Shown here one piece after another: positions 5,117 to 18,665 of a stretch of 57,186 nt of DNA. A program made the translations under genes and the position numbers. Numbering within the stretch: position 1 is the stretch's first letter; each line of letters begins with the position of its first letter. The stretch comes from a virus, in IMG/VR virus record IMGVR_UViG_3300012201_000004, positions 1-57,186 of that record, one strand, 5' to 3'. The notes beneath the pieces are model-generated. The model searched no databases and was not told the DNA's origin. It saw only the letters and a program-made list of their open reading frames with translations.

Positions 5117-5555
5117 GTCAGGTACCCCCGCTTAAAAAGCAGGGGGCTTGTAAGTAGGGCCGACTTCTAGCCGTCTCTTGCAAGCCCTGGACCTGACCAG
5201 ACTTAGTTTGCACGTACAGCCTGGAACAATCAGTCTGGTGCAAGCTACCTTACCGGCGAAATAGGTACGTCAGAATACGAGGCCAGTTCTGACCTCTACG
5301 GCATATGGTTAAACAGAGAAACGGGGTCTACTCAGTGCTGTATGCGTTAAACCGTCGGATAAGTTTGTCGAGGCCACCTTTACTTTGTGCGGAAAAGGGC
5401 TGGTTGAGCCATATTCTCAACCAGAGAAAGAGCACCGCACATGCTTCTTTCTCCCCCGTAAGGGGATGGTATTGGCACAAGGCGCGCGCAGCAGAGTGTG
5501 CGCCTTGCATTCCTCCCCTGGCTGAAGCCGTAGGGCTTCCTGAAAGGAAAATCCT
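5117..5555. mobile_element. Noncoding block with IS605-like hairpins at both ends
   Basis: No coding frame with a ribosome site. At the left is the minus-oriented hairpin 5126-5145, exact reverse complement of 273-292. At the right is a plus-oriented hairpin 5516-5535, preceded by an 8-bp inverted repeat (5478-5485 with 5500-5507). The two tips point outward like the ends of a palindrome-associated or non-autonomous IS200/IS605 derivative, possibly still holding an omega-RNA scaffold. No transposase remnant was recognised. Confidence 0.4.
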
Positions 5556-12517: not shown

Positions 12518-12658
12518 ATGACAGCACAGTGGCCGCAATGGAGTTACAAACCGAATAGGCAGCTACCGCGACACACGGCGTTGGTGCTGGTGTTGGTCGT
12601 GCCGGTTGTGATTGCGGGCGTCGTTGCGTTGGGCGAATTGTTGAGGATATGGCCGTGA
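12518..12658 (+). CDS. Small membrane protein, 46 aa
   Basis: A short frame with GAGG before its ATG. Basic N-terminus, then one hydrophobic helix (residues about 20-40). Its TGA overlaps the GTG start of the ParB-like gene, so it opens the modification operon. Function unknown. Confidence 0.5.
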   Translation: MTAQWPQWSYKPNRQLPRHTALVLVLVVPVVIAGVVALGELLRIWP

Positions 12659-13518
12659 GTGAACAGCGAATACAGGATCTCAAAGAGAATAGAGTCATTC
12701 CTCTCGCCGCCTTATATCCTCATAATAGAAATTACAAAAGTCATCCACCTGAGCAAATACGCAAAATCAAGGCGAGTCTTGAGCGATGGGGTCAAGTTCG
12801 GAGCATTGTCATCAAAGACGATGGCAACGGCTCATATACCATCGTTGCCGGTCATGGTGTGGTAGAAGCGGCACAACAACTCAAGATGAGCGACCTGCGT
12901 GCCGATGTTTTCCCTCAATGGGTTCCTGATGAAGAAATACTCGGGTATCTTGTGGCTGATAACGAGCTCGGCAATGACGCTGTAGATGATACGGAACTTT
13001 TAGCAAGCCTCCTGCAAGAGCAACAAGATGCGGGGTACGATCTGGCATCAATGGGTAGTGATGAGGAGACGTTGCGGCAGATGTTGGAGAGCCTGGGTGA
13101 TGAGTATGTGGGGGATGGTGAAACGCAAGAGGAGGAGGAAAGTGGAAGTCTCTTATCTTTACTGGACATCACTATAGCCGATCCTCGCCATGTGGTGTCG
13201 TCTGGCGACATCTGGAAGATGGGCAAACATACTCTCGTCATTGCCCATGTCTTCAAGGACTGGCATATCTGGACGCAGTACCTCAAAGATGAGTCGTGTT
13301 TATTCCTTCCGTTTCCTGGCCCGATGGTGGCACTTTCCGATAAGGCAGAGGAGTATACCCTCGTGCTCGTCCAACCTGACGCCTATATCGGCGGGCATGT
13401 GCTAGACCGCTACGCCGATATTCACGGTGAGAAGAGTGTTAAGAAGATTGAGCATGTGCAAGTAAGTGTGTTGCGGGAGGATGAAGCAGAGGTAGAGGAG
13501 GATATGGAGAATGAGTAG
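12655..13518 (+). CDS. ParB-like protein, DpdB-type partner of DpdA, 287 aa
   Basis: The GTG at 12655 has GAGG at 8 bases; the ATG at 12649 is too close to it. Residues about 12-105 are a ParB/sulfiredoxin-like domain (VIPLAALYPHNRNYKSHPPEQIRKIKASL, then IVAGHGVVEAAQQL). After an acidic linker, residues about 180-275 resemble the start and end of an adenine/cytosine methyltransferase domain (SGDIWKMGKHTLVI; DRYADIHGEKSVKK), but I see no catalytic DPPY/NPPY motif. In bacterial dpd clusters DpdB is a ParB-like ATPase needed with DpdA to insert 7-deazaguanine bases into DNA. The four-base overlap with the DpdA-like gene supports that role here. Confidence 0.65.
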   Translation: MSEQRIQDLKENRVIPLAALYPHNRNYKSHPPEQIRKIKASLERWGQVRSIVIKDDGNGSYTIVAGHGVVEAAQQLKMSDLRADVFPQWVPDEEILGYLVADNELGNDAVDDTELLASLLQEQQDAGYDLASMGSDEETLRQMLESLGDEYVGDGETQEEEESGSLLSLLDITIADPRHVVSSGDIWKMGKHTLVIAHVFKDWHIWTQYLKDESCLFLPFPGPMVALSDKAEEYTLVLVQPDAYIGGHVLDRYADIHGEKSVKKIEHVQVSVLREDEAEVEEDMENE

Positions 13519-14449
13519 CGTCATCCGTACCGGTGGAGGCACCTTTGACCCACACGAGGAAAACGTATACTTTATCGCTTCGGGCGCTGAACAATTAGCT
13601 ATCGCTGAAGAGGTGCATCATCATCTTCTTATCGCAGTAAATGAAATTGAAAGCAGCGAGTCTTTAGCGTGTTTAGATAGATGGACGAAAGACAATAGGA
13701 AACGCATTTTCCTTGACTCTGGCGTGTTTAACTTGTCTATGTCCTATGCGCGCAACCACAATGTTTCTATGGATACCGCCTTATCTCTAGATCCTACTGA
13801 AATTGATGGCTTTGATAAACTATGGGAGCAATACGTATCACTTGTTCTCAAGTATGGCGATAAATTGTGGGGGTATATCGAGATTGACCAGGGCGGGCGT
13901 GAGAATAAGATTAAGACTCGCGCCAGGCTCGAAGCGTTGGGATTGCGTCCTACTCCCGTATATCACCCCCTTAATGATGGATGGGACTACTTTGATTACC
14001 TGGCAGAGCGATATGATCGTATTTGCTTTGGAAATATTGTTAAGGCGAATGCATCTACCCGTCAACGCCTTATCGCAACTGCTTGGGAACGGCACCGTAA
14101 ATACCCAAATTTGTGGATACACTTTCTTGGCTTAACTCCTAATCAGTGGCTCAATGCTATGCCACTGAACAGCGGAGACTCTTCATCATGGCTTCACCCT
14201 ATTCGTTGGACAGTCTATCCATCATCGTGCGATGGTCAACAATTTAGCGAGATGGGAAGAGGATATCGCTATCTACTTCAGAAGGATGGTGGTGAGACTC
14301 ATGCTGAAAACGGCTCAGCCAAGGCTATTAAACTGTGTGGCTACAAATCTCGTATGGATATGCTTACTTGGAGACGGCATATGAACGATCTGATCTCACT
14401 CGGTTTTGAGAAATATCCCGCGCCGCAATGTGAGGTGACACATGGGTAG
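13511..14449 (+). CDS. dpdA: DpdA-like DNA 7-deazaguanine transglycosylase
   Basis: A distant tRNA-guanine transglycosylase relative. It shows a DSGVF motif (Asp69), a YIEID strand ending in Asp126, PVYHPL and FGNIV strands of the barrel, and a SGDSSSW motif (Asp223) near the C-terminus, as I know from phage DpdA proteins. The enzyme swaps guanine in DNA for a 7-deazaguanine base. Its neighbours supply exactly that base (FolE, QueD, QueE), and the ParB-like gene overlaps its start. At 312 aa it fits the shorter phage forms. Which Asp is the nucleophile is inference. Confidence 0.8.
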   Translation: MSSVIRTGGGTFDPHEENVYFIASGAEQLAIAEEVHHHLLIAVNEIESSESLACLDRWTKDNRKRIFLDSGVFNLSMSYARNHNVSMDTALSLDPTEIDGFDKLWEQYVSLVLKYGDKLWGYIEIDQGGRENKIKTRARLEALGLRPTPVYHPLNDGWDYFDYLAERYDRICFGNIVKANASTRQRLIATAWERHRKYPNLWIHFLGLTPNQWLNAMPLNSGDSSSWLHPIRWTVYPSSCDGQQFSEMGRGYRYLLQKDGGETHAENGSAKAIKLCGYKSRMDMLTWRRHMNDLISLGFEKYPAPQCEVTHG

Positions 14450-14786
14450 AATGCTTGCAGTTGTGCGCTTCACGCGTGAGGGCTGGCACTCGTGGCCCGA
14501 CGCGCCAGAGTCACGCGCTTACCTTGCCTCACTGCATCGACACCTGTTTCATGTGGAGGTGCAACTAGAAGTGTTTCATGCTGAGAGGGAAGTTGAGTAT
14601 CACGATCTCCTTGATTTCTGCAAAGAGCATTTCCATGGTGGAGATAGGGGTGGAGTCTCCTGTGAGACAATGGCGAAAGGGTTAGCACAAAGAATTACCG
14701 CTCGGTTTCCAGAGCGGTGGGGGCAGGTGTCGGTATTTGAGGATAACGAGGTGGGAGCTGTTTACTCCTGGGAGGTACAGAGATAA
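14442..14786 (+). CDS. QueD/PTPS-like paralogue, 114 aa
   Basis: A small relative of 6-pyruvoyl-tetrahydropterin/6-carboxy-tetrahydropterin synthase. HRHLFHVEV (His32, His34, His37) resembles the HGHNY zinc strand. A CETMAKGLA helix occupies the place of the usual TAENIA helix, and EDNEVGA the place of the C-terminal SETP-type strand. It lacks the leading SASH motif and part of the first strand, so activity may differ. The true QueD lies 270 bp downstream. It overlaps DpdA by eight bases and is likely part of the modification pathway. Confidence 0.6.
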   Translation: MGRMLAVVRFTREGWHSWPDAPESRAYLASLHRHLFHVEVQLEVFHAEREVEYHDLLDFCKEHFHGGDRGGVSCETMAKGLAQRITARFPERWGQVSVFEDNEVGAVYSWEVQR

Positions 14787-14935
14787 TGGTGGGTAGTGGC
14801 AGACGTAACGACAAGTCGGTCTCCATTGGTCAGCGCGTAGACATGACCAAGCTCGTTCTGCTCGTAGTCCTCTACCATGTCAGTATACCCAAGTGTTTCA
14901 ATCAGATTGTCAGCCTGTTCAATAGTGGTGTTCAT
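14762..14935 (-). CDS. Small leftward gene inside the modification operon, 57 aa
   Basis: The frame is oriented against all neighbours. ATG at 14935 is preceded by AGGAGAG at 10 bases, and an AT-rich TATTAT/TATACA -10 candidate lies just upstream. The acidic protein (MNTTIEQADNLIETLGY) has no family I recognise. Its end overlaps the QueD-like paralogue by 25 bp. It could be an independent small regulator or a moron gene. Confidence 0.5.
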   Translation of the reverse strand: MNTTIEQADNLIETLGYTDMVEDYEQNELGHVYALTNGDRLVVTSATTHHYLCTSQE

Positions 14936-15053
14936 GTTGTTTTTCTCTCCTGTATAATAAAACATTCATTTGATGACTCTAGTATCACCTATCTCGCGCA
15001 ATATGACAAGCGGCTTTACTGGCATATTCTTCCCATTTTTCGAGGGAGTACTT

Positions 15054-15413
15054 ATGTACACAATTAGCAAGCAGTTCGCGTTTAGCGCATCGCACGCGTT
15101 ACTTCATCTTCCAGATGGACACGTATGCAAGAGACTGCATGGTCATAACTACATGGTGGAATTGCTCTTGCGCCGCCCTGCGCTGGATGGGAGCGGCTTT
15201 GTGGTGGACTACAATGACATGAAACCCTTTGGGCTGTACCTTGACGAGCACCTTGACCACCAACATCTGAACGACGTGCTTCCAGACATGCCTCCCACGG
15301 CTGAGAACATTGCGAAACATTTGTACGGGATTGCCTGGGAGATGTTTCACGATGTCGCTATCACGGTACGGGTGAGCGAGACGCCAAAGACTTGCGCAGA
15401 GTACACACAATGA
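15054..15413 (+). CDS. queD: 6-carboxy-5,6,7,8-tetrahydropterin synthase
   Basis: The start at 15054 follows GAGGGAG. Hallmarks of the T-fold family are present: FSASHALL (His14), Cys25 four residues before LHGHNY (His29 and His31, zinc ligands), VVDYNDMK, LDHQHLND, PPTAENIA and a final VSETPKTCAEY strand. It converts dihydroneopterin triphosphate to carboxy-tetrahydropterin, the second step of 7-deazaguanine synthesis. At 119 aa it has the usual length. ATGA overlap links it to QueE. Confidence 0.9.
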   Translation: MYTISKQFAFSASHALLHLPDGHVCKRLHGHNYMVELLLRRPALDGSGFVVDYNDMKPFGLYLDEHLDHQHLNDVLPDMPPTAENIAKHLYGIAWEMFHDVAITVRVSETPKTCAEYTQ

Positions 15414-16108
15414 GCAAACTTACCATCTCAGAGTGCTTTGGGCCAACGGTGCAGGGTGAAGGTGCCTTGATCGGGAAGCCCACCGTCTTTGTACGTACTG
15501 GCGGGTGCGAGTATCGCTGTTCCTGGTGTGATACCCTCTATGCCGTCCTCCCTGAATATAAAGACGAGTGGCGGCAGATGAGTACCCAGGAGGTGTTTAC
15601 TGAAATACAACGCTTATCGCCAAAGCCTATTCTCGTGACGCTCTCAGGTGGCAATCCAGCGATACAACCACTCGGAGACTTGATCGACCTGGGACATCAG
15701 CACGGGTACACCTTCTGCATGGAGACGCAGGGAAGTATAGCACGGTCCTACATGCGGCGGCTGGATTATCTCACGTTATCGCCTAAGCCACCATCTAGCG
15801 GGATGAAAACACGGTGGGAGCGATTAGATGGATGCTTCGAGACAGAGGCAAGTGTATTTCTCAAGGTGGTGGTATTCGATGACGCCGATTATGCCTATGC
15901 TCAACATATTCATGAACGGTATCCAACAACGCCAATGTACTTACAACCTGGGAATGCTACACCTCCACATGTGGGAGCATTCGATATCGAAGGGGTACTC
16001 AGTAAGACTCGTTGGCTCATTGAGAAGGTGACACAGGATCAGTGGAATGAGGTCACGGTGTTACCACAACTCCACACTCTTTTGTGGCAAAACCAGAGGG
16101 GGATGTAA
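15410..16108 (+). CDS. queE: 7-carboxy-7-deazaguanine synthase
   Basis: A radical-SAM enzyme. The cluster motif is CEYRCSWC (Cys33, Cys37, Cys40; the CX3CX2C spacing usual in QueE), preceded by GPTVQGEGALIGKP, which binds SAM and substrate. SGGNP replaces the common SGGEP. ETQGS and LSPKP follow as in the family. It ring-contracts carboxy-tetrahydropterin to 7-carboxy-7-deazaguanine. At 232 aa the length is normal. It overlaps QueD and runs into FolE. Confidence 0.92.
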   Translation: MSKLTISECFGPTVQGEGALIGKPTVFVRTGGCEYRCSWCDTLYAVLPEYKDEWRQMSTQEVFTEIQRLSPKPILVTLSGGNPAIQPLGDLIDLGHQHGYTFCMETQGSIARSYMRRLDYLTLSPKPPSSGMKTRWERLDGCFETEASVFLKVVVFDDADYAYAQHIHERYPTTPMYLQPGNATPPHVGAFDIEGVLSKTRWLIEKVTQDQWNEVTVLPQLHTLLWQNQRGM

Positions 16109-16110
16109 AG

Positions 16111-16674
16111 GTGTCTGAGGTAAATTATCAAGCGTTGCTTACAATAGGGCGTGAACTGCTACAAGCCATAGGGGAAGACCCTGAGCGAGAGGGGATCAAG
16201 GACACGCCACGTCGTTTTGCAGATTGGTGGAAAGAGTTCATTGACTACCAACCTGGAAGTCTTGATACGTGTTTCGAGAGCATCACGACCGACCAAATGG
16301 TGACGGTATCAGGTATGCGGGTGTGGAGCCTCTGTGAGCATCATCTCCTCCCATTCTGGTGTGATGTCTCTATTGGGTATATCGCAGGTGAACAGGTTTT
16401 AGGATTATCGAAGTTTGCGCGGATCGCTCACAAGTATGCTCATACCTTGCAACTCCAAGAGCGATTATGTCACCAGATCGCCGATGAGATTACACGGATT
16501 GTCGGCACTGAGGATGTGGCGGTGTTAGCGCGTGGGCGACACCTGTGTATGGAGATGCGCGGTGTGAGGACACCTGGACTTATGTCCTCGTCCGTGATGC
16601 GTGGTTTGTTTCGTGATAAGAACGAGGCCCGTATGGAGTTTTTGCAGTTGGTGAAGGAGTCAAGACATGACTGA
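16111..16674 (+). CDS. folE: GTP cyclohydrolase I
   Basis: GTG at 16111 is used because AGGGGG lies about 10 bases upstream; the earlier GTG at 16084 has no site. Zinc ligands are visible in SLCEHHLLPF (Cys75, His78) and HLCMEMRGV (Cys146). REGIKDTPRR and GLSKFARIAHKYA match substrate and oligomer segments. It opens GTP to dihydroneopterin triphosphate, the first step towards 7-deazaguanine bases. Its presence lets the phage raise precursor flux. The stop overlaps the terminase small subunit start. Confidence 0.93.
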   Translation: MSEVNYQALLTIGRELLQAIGEDPEREGIKDTPRRFADWWKEFIDYQPGSLDTCFESITTDQMVTVSGMRVWSLCEHHLLPFWCDVSIGYIAGEQVLGLSKFARIAHKYAHTLQLQERLCHQIADEITRIVGTEDVAVLARGRHLCMEMRGVRTPGLMSSSVMRGLFRDKNEARMEFLQLVKESRHD

Positions 16675-17209
16675 TACCCGCAAACCATCCTTACAAAAAA
16701 ACACGAGTAGCCATGTCCGTACCAGCGCCCGCCGCCCTGGTCATCGTCTCACCGAAGAGCAGACGCACGAGGCACAAGAGAAGTTCCTCAAAGCTTTTGC
16801 CTCCAACGGTAATGTACGTGTCGCGTGTACCGCCGCTGGCATTGACCGCTCAACCGTTCACGCCTGGACTGAGCATGACGAACAGTTCTCGATGGAGTAC
16901 AACCTTGCTAAAGAGGATGTCAACGATGCGATCCGTGCTGAGATCTATAGACGCGGCATGTTTGGAGAGGAACGCTTTGTCGTCGCTCAGGGGAGGATTG
17001 TCAACGGGCCTGATGGGAAGCCGCTCACGTACCGGGAGAAGTCGGATACGCTACTCATCTTCCATGCAAAGAGTCGCATGCCTGAGTATCGAGATAAGCA
17101 ACAGGTAGAGCATTCGGGAAGCATTGATGTTTCTGGCGCGGCTGAATCACTCTTTCAGAAGGTGGCGATGGGTATGTCTCAAGAGTCGGAGGCACCCAAA
17201 GATGGGTAG
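16667..17209 (+). CDS. Terminase small subunit
   Basis: 180 aa with a basic disordered N-terminus (about 1-30), then a helix-turn-helix (FLKAFASNGNVRVACTAAGIDRSTVHAW) typical of small terminases that recognise packaging sites. The C-terminus is a helical oligomerisation region. It overlaps the large subunit gene. AAGGAG precedes the start. The tandem FolE-terminase overlap suggests modification and packaging genes share a transcript. Confidence 0.8.
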   Translation: MTDTRKPSLQKNTSSHVRTSARRPGHRLTEEQTHEAQEKFLKAFASNGNVRVACTAAGIDRSTVHAWTEHDEQFSMEYNLAKEDVNDAIRAEIYRRGMFGEERFVVAQGRIVNGPDGKPLTYREKSDTLLIFHAKSRMPEYRDKQQVEHSGSIDVSGAAESLFQKVAMGMSQESEAPKDG

Positions 17210-18665
17210 TGCCGTTTCTCGCGTCCCCATGACCGATGAATACTTCCAGCGATGCCGGTGGTTTGCCCATCAGCCACGCGAGAAGAAACTGGAAATCATC
17301 AAGACGCTCAGCGACGAAGAAGCACTTATTTTCAAATATACGTGGGAAGCATGGGCGCGTGACAAGCAATTGGCACAGATAGAGGCTCCTGGGTATCGTT
17401 GGAGGAACTGGATTCACCTTGCGGGCCGTGGGAATGGGAAGACGCGAACGGGTGCGGAATGGATACGACAGCAGGCAGAGAGTAACAAGATTGAACGTAT
17501 GATCCTCGTTGCTCGCACCGCCGCCGATGTGCGAGATACGATGGTCGAGGGAGAGAGCGGCATCCTTGCCATTAGTCCCCCCTGGTTCGCGCCTAAGTAT
17601 GAGCCATCAAAACGGCGGCTTACGTGGCCTAATGGGAGTATGGCGATCACTTTTAGCGCAGATGAACCTGATGCGCTCCGTGGGCCTCAGTGCGCGAGGG
17701 CATGGGCAGATGAACGCGCATCTTGGCAGTATGACCAGGCGTGGGATAACCTCATGATGGGTATGCGTTTAGGCGAAGATCCTCAGTGTATCGTGACGAC
17801 GACACCGCGCCCGACAAAGGCCATCATTGAACTGAAGAAGGCGAAAACCTCTAAGGTTACGGTAGGCGTGACCTATGAGAATAGAGATAACCTTGCACCG
17901 TCATTTCTCACCGAGATATTACGCAAGTACGAGAATACTCGCCTGGGCAGACAGGAGATCTATGCTGAAATCCTCGAGGATATCGAAGGGGCGCTCTGGA
18001 ACTATGCCATGTTGGAGCGGAACCGCGTGGTCAAAGCTCCTGAATTGGTGCGTGTCGTGGTGGGCGTCGATCCGTCTGTGACCAATAATGAAGACTCTGA
18101 CGAGACGGGTATCATCGTAACGGGCCTGGGTGTTGATGGACATGCCTATGTGTTGGCAGATTACACTATCAAAGGCTCCCCGCTAGAATGGGCAACCGCC
18201 GTTGTGACTGCCTATCACCTGTTCCATGCTGATCGCGTCGTAGCTGAAGTGAACAATGGTGGAGATCTCGTAGAGCAGAATGTGAAGCTTGTTGATGAGA
18301 ATATTTCCTACAAGGCGGTTCATGCTTCACGCGGGAAGATTACCCGTGCTGAGCCGGTTGTGGCAATCTACGAGCAGGGGCGCGCTCACCATGTCGGCAA
18401 CCTGGCAAAGCTGGAAGACGAGCAATGTACATGGCTGCAAGGAATGAAGTCACCTAATAGGCTGGATGCGTGTGTTTGGACAATAAACGAACTAGTGTTG
18501 AATAGCGGTACTATCCCTCTTGTTATTTCTACAGGCGGCACACCCAATCCACTCCCACCATTCAACACGGTAGAAGACGAAGAAGAGAATGCCCGCTTGC
18601 AGGCAGAGCAAGAGCGCCGCGCCAACATCGTCGGGGTGCTACAGAGACTTGGAGGACTGATATGA
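17202..18665 (+). CDS. terL: Terminase large subunit
   Basis: ATG at 17202 overlaps the small-subunit stop; the frame is open to 17124. The ATPase domain has Walker A GRGNGKT (Lys80), Walker B ARAWADE (Asp170-Glu171) and a TTTPRP coupling motif. The nuclease domain begins at VVGVDPS (Asp290), an RNase H-like fold with further acidic residues downstream. It powers DNA packaging and cuts concatemers. Length (487 aa) is normal. Confidence 0.93.
   Translation: MGSAVSRVPMTDEYFQRCRWFAHQPREKKLEIIKTLSDEEALIFKYTWEAWARDKQLAQIEAPGYRWRNWIHLAGRGNGKTRTGAEWIRQQAESNKIERMILVARTAADVRDTMVEGESGILAISPPWFAPKYEPSKRRLTWPNGSMAITFSADEPDALRGPQCARAWADERASWQYDQAWDNLMMGMRLGEDPQCIVTTTPRPTKAIIELKKAKTSKVTVGVTYENRDNLAPSFLTEILRKYENTRLGRQEIYAEILEDIEGALWNYAMLERNRVVKAPELVRVVVGVDPSVTNNEDSDETGIIVTGLGVDGHAYVLADYTIKGSPLEWATAVVTAYHLFHADRVVAEVNNGGDLVEQNVKLVDENISYKAVHASRGKITRAEPVVAIYEQGRAHHVGNLAKLEDEQCTWLQGMKSPNRLDACVWTINELVLNSGTIPLVISTGGTPNPLPPFNTVEDEEENARLQAEQERRANIVGVLQRLGGLI

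What the first reader, a model, noticed from the sequence alone, without database searches (positions are those of the whole stretch)
12655..16674. Phage 7-deazaguanine DNA modification operon lacking QueC
Seen: ParB-like, DpdA-like, QueD-like, QueD, QueE and FolE genes in overlapping order directly before terminase. Known: FolE, QueD and QueE lead from GTP to 7-carboxy-7-deazaguanine; QueC then makes preQ0; DpdA inserts such bases into DNA, protecting phage from restriction. Inference: without QueC, the base inserted may be the carboxy form itself, or the host supplies QueC. This would be a rare chemistry and, to my knowledge, little described in this host group.
Basis: partly seen in the sequence, partly recalled or inferred. 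Interest (0 to 1): 0.9.

Follow-up and report, generated by a model that had tools for sequence, protein, structure and literature searches.

The report
Phage DNA-base operon with QueC swapped
This phage carries a set of genes for replacing guanine in its DNA with a 7-deazaguanine base, and in the place where relatives keep the enzyme QueC it has a small remodelled copy of another pathway enzyme, which suggests that it makes a different, probably simpler, base to hide its DNA from bacterial defences.

Summary
The operon is real: a ParB-like protein, DpdA, a small QueD-like protein ("sQ"), QueD, QueE and FolE, directly before the terminase, and no QueC in the 57-kb record. It is the gene order of Rosebush-type mycobacteriophages (ParB-DpdA-QueC-QueD-QueE-FolE-terminase; Rosebush DNA carries dPreQ0) with QueC replaced by sQ. 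Among 90 related loci, 73 have sQ and none of these has QueC. The 7 with QueC all lack sQ, and in 5 of them QueC starts 3-9 bp after dpdA, in sQ's slot. sQ has the QueD fold and its zinc histidines, but none of 187 relatives keeps the catalytic cysteine, and most sQ genomes checked also encode a normal QueD. Seven actinobacterial hosts of such operons have no real QueC. So sQ most likely acts on QueE's product CDG in QueC's place. Decarboxylation to 7-deazaguanine is the best guess; it would match the predicted enzyme DpdL of Cui et al. 2023, which I recall but could not read. The chemistry is inferred, not measured.

The parts
12649..13518 (+). ParB-like protein (289 aa): ParB/Noc-type N-terminal domain plus a conserved C-terminal domain of about 110 aa with (F/C)xPYPGP...VQPDxYxAGHxLDRY; possible reduced ParB-methyltransferase fusion; putative DpdA partner
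   Evidence: phrog_498/620; PADLOC MTase_II over residues 17-199; AF2 pLDDT 85.5, C-terminal domain mostly above 95; Foldseek Noc/ParB; present in 85 of 90 DpdA loci, and the other 5 have dpdA at a contig edge
13511..14449 (+). DpdA, DNA guanine transglycosylase (312 aa), nearest (of ten compared) to the DpdA of phage 9g
   Evidence: phrog_887; hhalign to 9g DpdA E 7e-15; invariant D69-S70-G71, E124, D126 and D223 across 31 homologues
14442..14786 (+). Small QueD paralogue 'sQ' (114 aa), in QueC's slot; probable CDG-acting enzyme, best guess CDG decarboxylase (DpdL-like)
   Evidence: AF2 pLDDT 95.6 and Foldseek top hit E. coli QueD TM 0.80; hhalign to QueD E 2e-9; CxxxHxH cysteine absent in 187/187; mutually exclusive with QueC
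14762..14935 (-). Short antisense ORF (57 aa) with a strong Shine-Dalgarno-like sequence, in the gap between sQ and QueD; unknown, not clearly part of the pathway
15054..15413 (+). QueD, 6-carboxytetrahydropterin synthase (119 aa), canonical CxxxHGH
   Evidence: PF01242 7e-28, TIGR03367, own-record hit 15060-15407
15410..16108 (+). QueE, radical-SAM 7-carboxy-7-deazaguanine synthase
   Evidence: TIGR03365 E 2e-98, above cut-off; phrog_2076
16084..16674 (+). FolE, GTP cyclohydrolase I
   Evidence: PF01227 6e-53; NF006826 above cut-off
16667..17209 (+). Terminase small subunit (context)
   Evidence: phrog_4044 1e-29
17229..18665 (+). Terminase large subunit (context)
   Evidence: PF03237/PF17289

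Best explanation
The operon makes a 7-deazaguanine base from GTP (FolE, QueD, QueE -> CDG) and puts it into phage DNA by guanine exchange (DpdA, probably with its ParB-like partner). In QueC's place a catalytically remodelled QueD paralogue (sQ) acts on CDG, most likely removing the 7-carboxyl group to give 7-deazaguanine, which DpdA inserts; the modified DNA resists host restriction. Shown here: the gene set, the swap with QueC, the predicted QueD fold of sQ, and the loss of QueD's cysteine. Inferred: that sQ's substrate is CDG (likely), that the reaction is decarboxylation (best guess), the role of the ParB-like protein, and the anti-restriction effect (known for relatives).
For: Same gene order as Rosebush-type phage Eaglehorse with QueC in the sQ position; Rosebush DNA has dPreQ0 at about 28% of G (PMC6884629). 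sQ and QueC never co-occur: 73 sQ+/QueC-, 7 sQ-/QueC+, 0 both, Fisher P 2.6e-6; a further 46 sQ+ records have no QueC above cut-off, nor do six isolate phages. In 5 of 7 QueC carriers an intact QueC starts 3-9 bp after dpdA. QueC carriers are scattered on the DpdA tree, at least 3 changes forced by strong branches. sQ folds like QueD, keeps the H16/H32/H34 zinc triad and E100, but no relative has QueD's Cys. 30 of 34 records checked (31 of them sQ+) have a separate PTPS/QueD, so sQ is an extra step. No sQ+ record has a QueF above cut-off, as expected without preQ0. DpdA position 88 is D/N in 66/72 sQ+ and 0/6 QueC+ proteins, consistent with DpdA meeting a different base. Actinobacterial hosts lack QueC.
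Against: No chemistry was measured. Decarboxylation is not implied by the fold: the decarboxylase proposed for CDG-derived nucleotide in tubercidin synthesis (TubF) is an unrelated UbiD enzyme (PMC6112128). Two long sQ+ records (G002, G003) show no QueD. Mycobacterium phage Bipper has an apparently unrelated protein (gp4) in the same slot and no QueC, so the slot can hold other things. The Fisher and permutation tests ignore phylogeny.
Confidence: 0.6

Rival explanations
1. CDG itself is inserted: sQ is a binding, delivery or regulatory protein, or an inactive paralogue, and DpdA accepts CDG.
For: No QueC in the record, and no other recognised tailoring gene among the window ORFs scanned; dCDG in phage DNA is, from memory, reported by Cui et al. 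2023.
Against: sQ is kept in 73 of 90 related loci beside dpdA, with invariant polar residues (H16, H32, R33, H34, R49, E52, C74, E75, E100, D101, E103) as expected for an enzyme, and it excludes QueC.
Confidence: 0.13
2. sQ does another reaction on CDG (for example amide formation or conjugation through the invariant Cys74), giving a different 7-substituted base.
For: The T-fold also supports QueF and QueF-like chemistry; Foldseek lists QueF-like structures among weaker matches; sQ has a new invariant S73-C74-E75.
Against: No ATP-binding motif for amide synthesis was seen in the 114-residue protein; QueF itself keeps a different motif (own knowledge).
Confidence: 0.15
3. The host supplies QueC, the phage inserts preQ0, and sQ is a spare QueD-like enzyme.
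For: Three of the ten bacterial genomes searched carry full-length QueC; the window's host is unknown.
Against: Seven actinobacterial genomes with sQ-type operons have no full-length QueC; sQ lacks QueD's catalytic cysteine; mutual exclusion with QueC is then unexplained.
Confidence: 0.08
4. Products go to tRNA queuosine rather than DNA.
For: DpdA belongs to the tRNA-guanine transglycosylase superfamily.
Against: Nearest to the DNA-type DpdA of phage 9g; linked to a ParB-like protein and the terminase; no queF, and tRNA queuosine needs preQ1.
Confidence: 0.03

Closest known systems
Rosebush-type mycobacteriophage dPreQ0 operon (ParB-DpdA-QueC-QueD-QueE-FolE-terminase)
   Same: Same six-gene order next to the terminase, with a ParB-like and a DpdA-type protein; inserts a 7-deazaguanine (dPreQ0, about 28% of G)
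   Different: QueC is replaced by sQ; the DpdA similarity is remote (hhalign E 0.001); the ParB-like protein here has an extra conserved C-terminal domain
Mycobacterium phage Bipper/Typha operon (QueC-less)
   Same: ParB-DpdA-X-QueD-QueE-FolE-terminase without QueC; Bipper was noted in 2019 as possibly having CDG in DNA
   Different: The protein in the slot (gp4) is not recognisably sQ (hhalign E 0.2)
DpdL, predicted CDG decarboxylase, and dDG/dCDG phages (Cui et al. 2023, NAR, gkad657; recalled, paper not held)
   Same: Same predicted step (CDG to 7-deazaguanine); Cellulophaga phage phi13:1 carries sQ near QueD/QueE/FolE
   Different: I could not check whether DpdL is the sQ family; no chemistry here
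QueD / 6-carboxytetrahydropterin synthase
   Same: Fold (TM 0.80 to 4ntk), zinc-binding H...HxH, terminal Glu
   Different: Catalytic Cys and the Asp-His of QueD missing; invariant SCE, R49 and E52 gained; a separate QueD is present
Phage 9g dG+ pathway
   Same: Its DpdA is the closest of the ten compared
   Different: 9g uses Gat-QueC and makes archaeosine

Membership tests
Phage 7-deazaguanine DNA-modification pathway | FolE, QueD and QueE encoded together | tested here: met
Phage 7-deazaguanine DNA-modification pathway | DpdA-type transglycosylase | tested here: met
   phrog_887 2e-22; hhalign to 9g DpdA 7e-15
Phage 7-deazaguanine DNA-modification pathway | QueC (for preQ0-type bases) | tested here: not met
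   No PF06508 in the record
Phage 7-deazaguanine DNA-modification pathway | Modified deoxyguanosine in virion DNA | not testable with these tools
   Needs LC-MS of virion DNA
QueD (CPH4 synthase), for sQ | T-fold with three zinc histidines | tested here: met
QueD (CPH4 synthase), for sQ | Catalytic Cys in CxxxHxH | tested here: not met
   0 of 187 sQ proteins against 52 of 53 QueD proteins
DpdL (CDG decarboxylase) | Membership in the DpdL sequence family of Cui et al. 2023 | not testable with these tools
   Paper not held; no held phage paper names DpdL
DpdL (CDG decarboxylase) | Occurs with FolE/QueD/QueE/DpdA and without QueC | tested here: met
DpdL (CDG decarboxylase) | Decarboxylates CDG | not testable with these tools
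   Needs enzyme assay
Bacterial dpd island | dpdB/dpdC and restriction genes dpdD-K | not tested
   Not searched for by name; PADLOC gave no Dpd-named hit for the six operon proteins

The most novel reading that the evidence does not exclude
sQ is a QueD-fold enzyme that has exchanged places with QueC several times independently, so phages switch the base in their DNA by swapping one gene in a fixed operon slot, with DpdA changing to match; a decarboxylation (or other reaction) on CDG by a T-fold enzyme would be a new use of that fold.
Probability: 0.45. Interest if true: 0.7.

Novelty: new variant of a known kind. Interest (0 to 1): 0.55.

Why it matters
If true, one interchangeable gene slot decides which 7-deazaguanine base a phage puts in its DNA. 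That makes the base predictable from sequence, gives a function to phrog_17812 (recorded as unknown; all 30 sQ proteins scanned hit it), and offers a small enzyme for making 7-deazaguanine. At least 575 stretches in viral contigs encode sQ relatives, so the modification may be common.

Tried and rejected
QueC hidden elsewhere in the record: none. sQ as the pathway's only QueD: rejected, a canonical QueD is also present in the window and in most sQ+ records. Fusion of sQ to DpdA as direct proof of a shared step: the two long sQ proteins (Bakedbeans gp176, MA9V-3) have N-terminal parts with no convincing Pfam match. Bipper gp4 as a divergent sQ: not supported. Sequence search of the PDB with DpdA: no hit; with sQ: only a weak full-length PTPS match (E 0.31), so the fold comparison was used instead. 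The methyltransferase-relic reading of the ParB-like C-terminus: suggestive only; no Pfam match to the isolated domain from the window, and Foldseek's 50 listed matches are ParB/Noc-like and sulfiredoxin/serine-kinase-like folds with no methyltransferase. Cui et al. 2023 and the 2024 MMBR review are not held.

Full report
Observation. The window is the whole held viral record of 57,186 bp and contains no QueC; QueE and FolE pass curated cut-offs. The only break in the overlapping order is a gap of about 267 bp between the small QueD-like gene and QueD, which holds a short antisense ORF.

Relatives. A DpdA search of IMG/VR gave 48 loci, 46-60% identical apart from one identical contig, an alignment search 79, and a bacterial genome search 10. 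The block ParB-DpdA-sQ with QueD, QueE and FolE nearby recurs in most. A ParB-like gene was found in 85 of 90 loci; the other five have dpdA at a contig edge.

The swap. QueC is found in only 7 of the 90 loci, and all 7 lack sQ; 73 have sQ and no QueC (Fisher P 2.6e-6). In 5 of the 7, a QueC with intact SGGxDS and zinc motifs starts 3-9 bp after the dpdA frame, where sQ sits elsewhere. Of the ten loci with neither, most are short or cut near the slot; L101, L125 and L128 pair with QueC carriers on the DpdA tree (L128 lies in a 43.7-kb record without either gene), and L114 is a fragment with the same match as QueC carrier L113. QueC carriers are scattered over the DpdA tree: 6 changes needed, 3 forced by strong branches. 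Another 46 records fetched through sQ have no QueC above cut-off, nor do six isolate phages. Mycobacterium phage Eaglehorse, of the Rosebush type, has the identical order with QueC in the slot, and Rosebush DNA carries dPreQ0 (PMC6884629).

What sQ is. The model (pLDDT 95.6) matches E. coli QueD best (4ntk, TM 0.80), and profile comparison with QueD gives E 2e-9. The three zinc histidines and a C-terminal Glu are kept; the CxxxHxH cysteine is absent in all 187 sQ proteins and present in 52 of 53 QueDs; new invariant residues include S73-C74-E75, R49 and E52. A separate PTPS/QueD is present in 30 of 34 records tested, 31 of which carry sQ. No sQ+ record has a QueF above cut-off, while both positive controls do. 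All 30 sQ proteins scanned match phrog_17812, recorded as unknown function.

Host supply. Seven Streptomyces, Kitasatospora and Amycolatopsis genomes with sQ-type operons have only short partial PF06508 hits inside long open frames, not QueC. The window's host is not known.

Mechanism. FolE, QueD and QueE give CDG. sQ, standing where QueC stands, most simply acts on CDG; removing the carboxyl gives 7-deazaguanine. The decarboxylation proposed in tubercidin synthesis uses an unrelated UbiD enzyme (PMC6112128), so the reaction is plausible but not dictated by the fold. DpdA then exchanges guanine for the base, possibly guided by the ParB-like protein. DpdA position 88 is Asp/Asn in 66 of 72 sQ+ proteins and in none of 6 QueC+ ones, a lead, not corrected for phylogeny.

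Known and new. QueC-less operons and possible CDG in DNA were discussed in 2019. From memory, Cui et al. 2023 report dDG and dCDG in phages and predict a CDG decarboxylase DpdL; I could not read it. If DpdL is the sQ family, the enzyme is known and the new part is the repeated slot swap, the QueC-less hosts and the ParB-like partner.

Noticed in passing
window 5117-5383 (+): HEARO (IscB-type omega) RNA, 118 bits, well above the family cut-off, but no RRXRR/IscB match in the record and only ORFs of 121 and 150 aa downstream.
   Followed up: partly
window 14762-14935 (-): Antisense ORF of 57 aa with a strong Shine-Dalgarno-like sequence inside the operon gap.
   Followed up: partly
L049 6957-7985; L050 5440-6600; L051 6831-7892: In large phages ACP17, X1 and Cassandra, ORFs of a shared glycosyltransferase-like type (judged by eye) lie in the sQ gene cluster, in ACP17 and Cassandra directly between the DpdA-like gene and sQ; possible further decoration of the base.
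   Followed up: no
L060 2047-2472; L215 2043-2468; L216 2043-2468: Mycobacteriophages Bipper, Typha and Nadezda carry a conserved protein of about 141 aa (gp4) in the QueC/sQ slot that is not recognisably sQ or QueD.
   Followed up: partly
window 13165-13518: Conserved C-terminal domain of the ParB-like protein, predicted with high confidence, without a Pfam family.
   Followed up: partly
L057 6125-7276; L053 7461-8342: sQ domain as the C-terminal part of longer proteins (383 and 293 aa) in Vibrio phage Bakedbeans and Chryseobacterium phage MA9V-3.
   Followed up: partly
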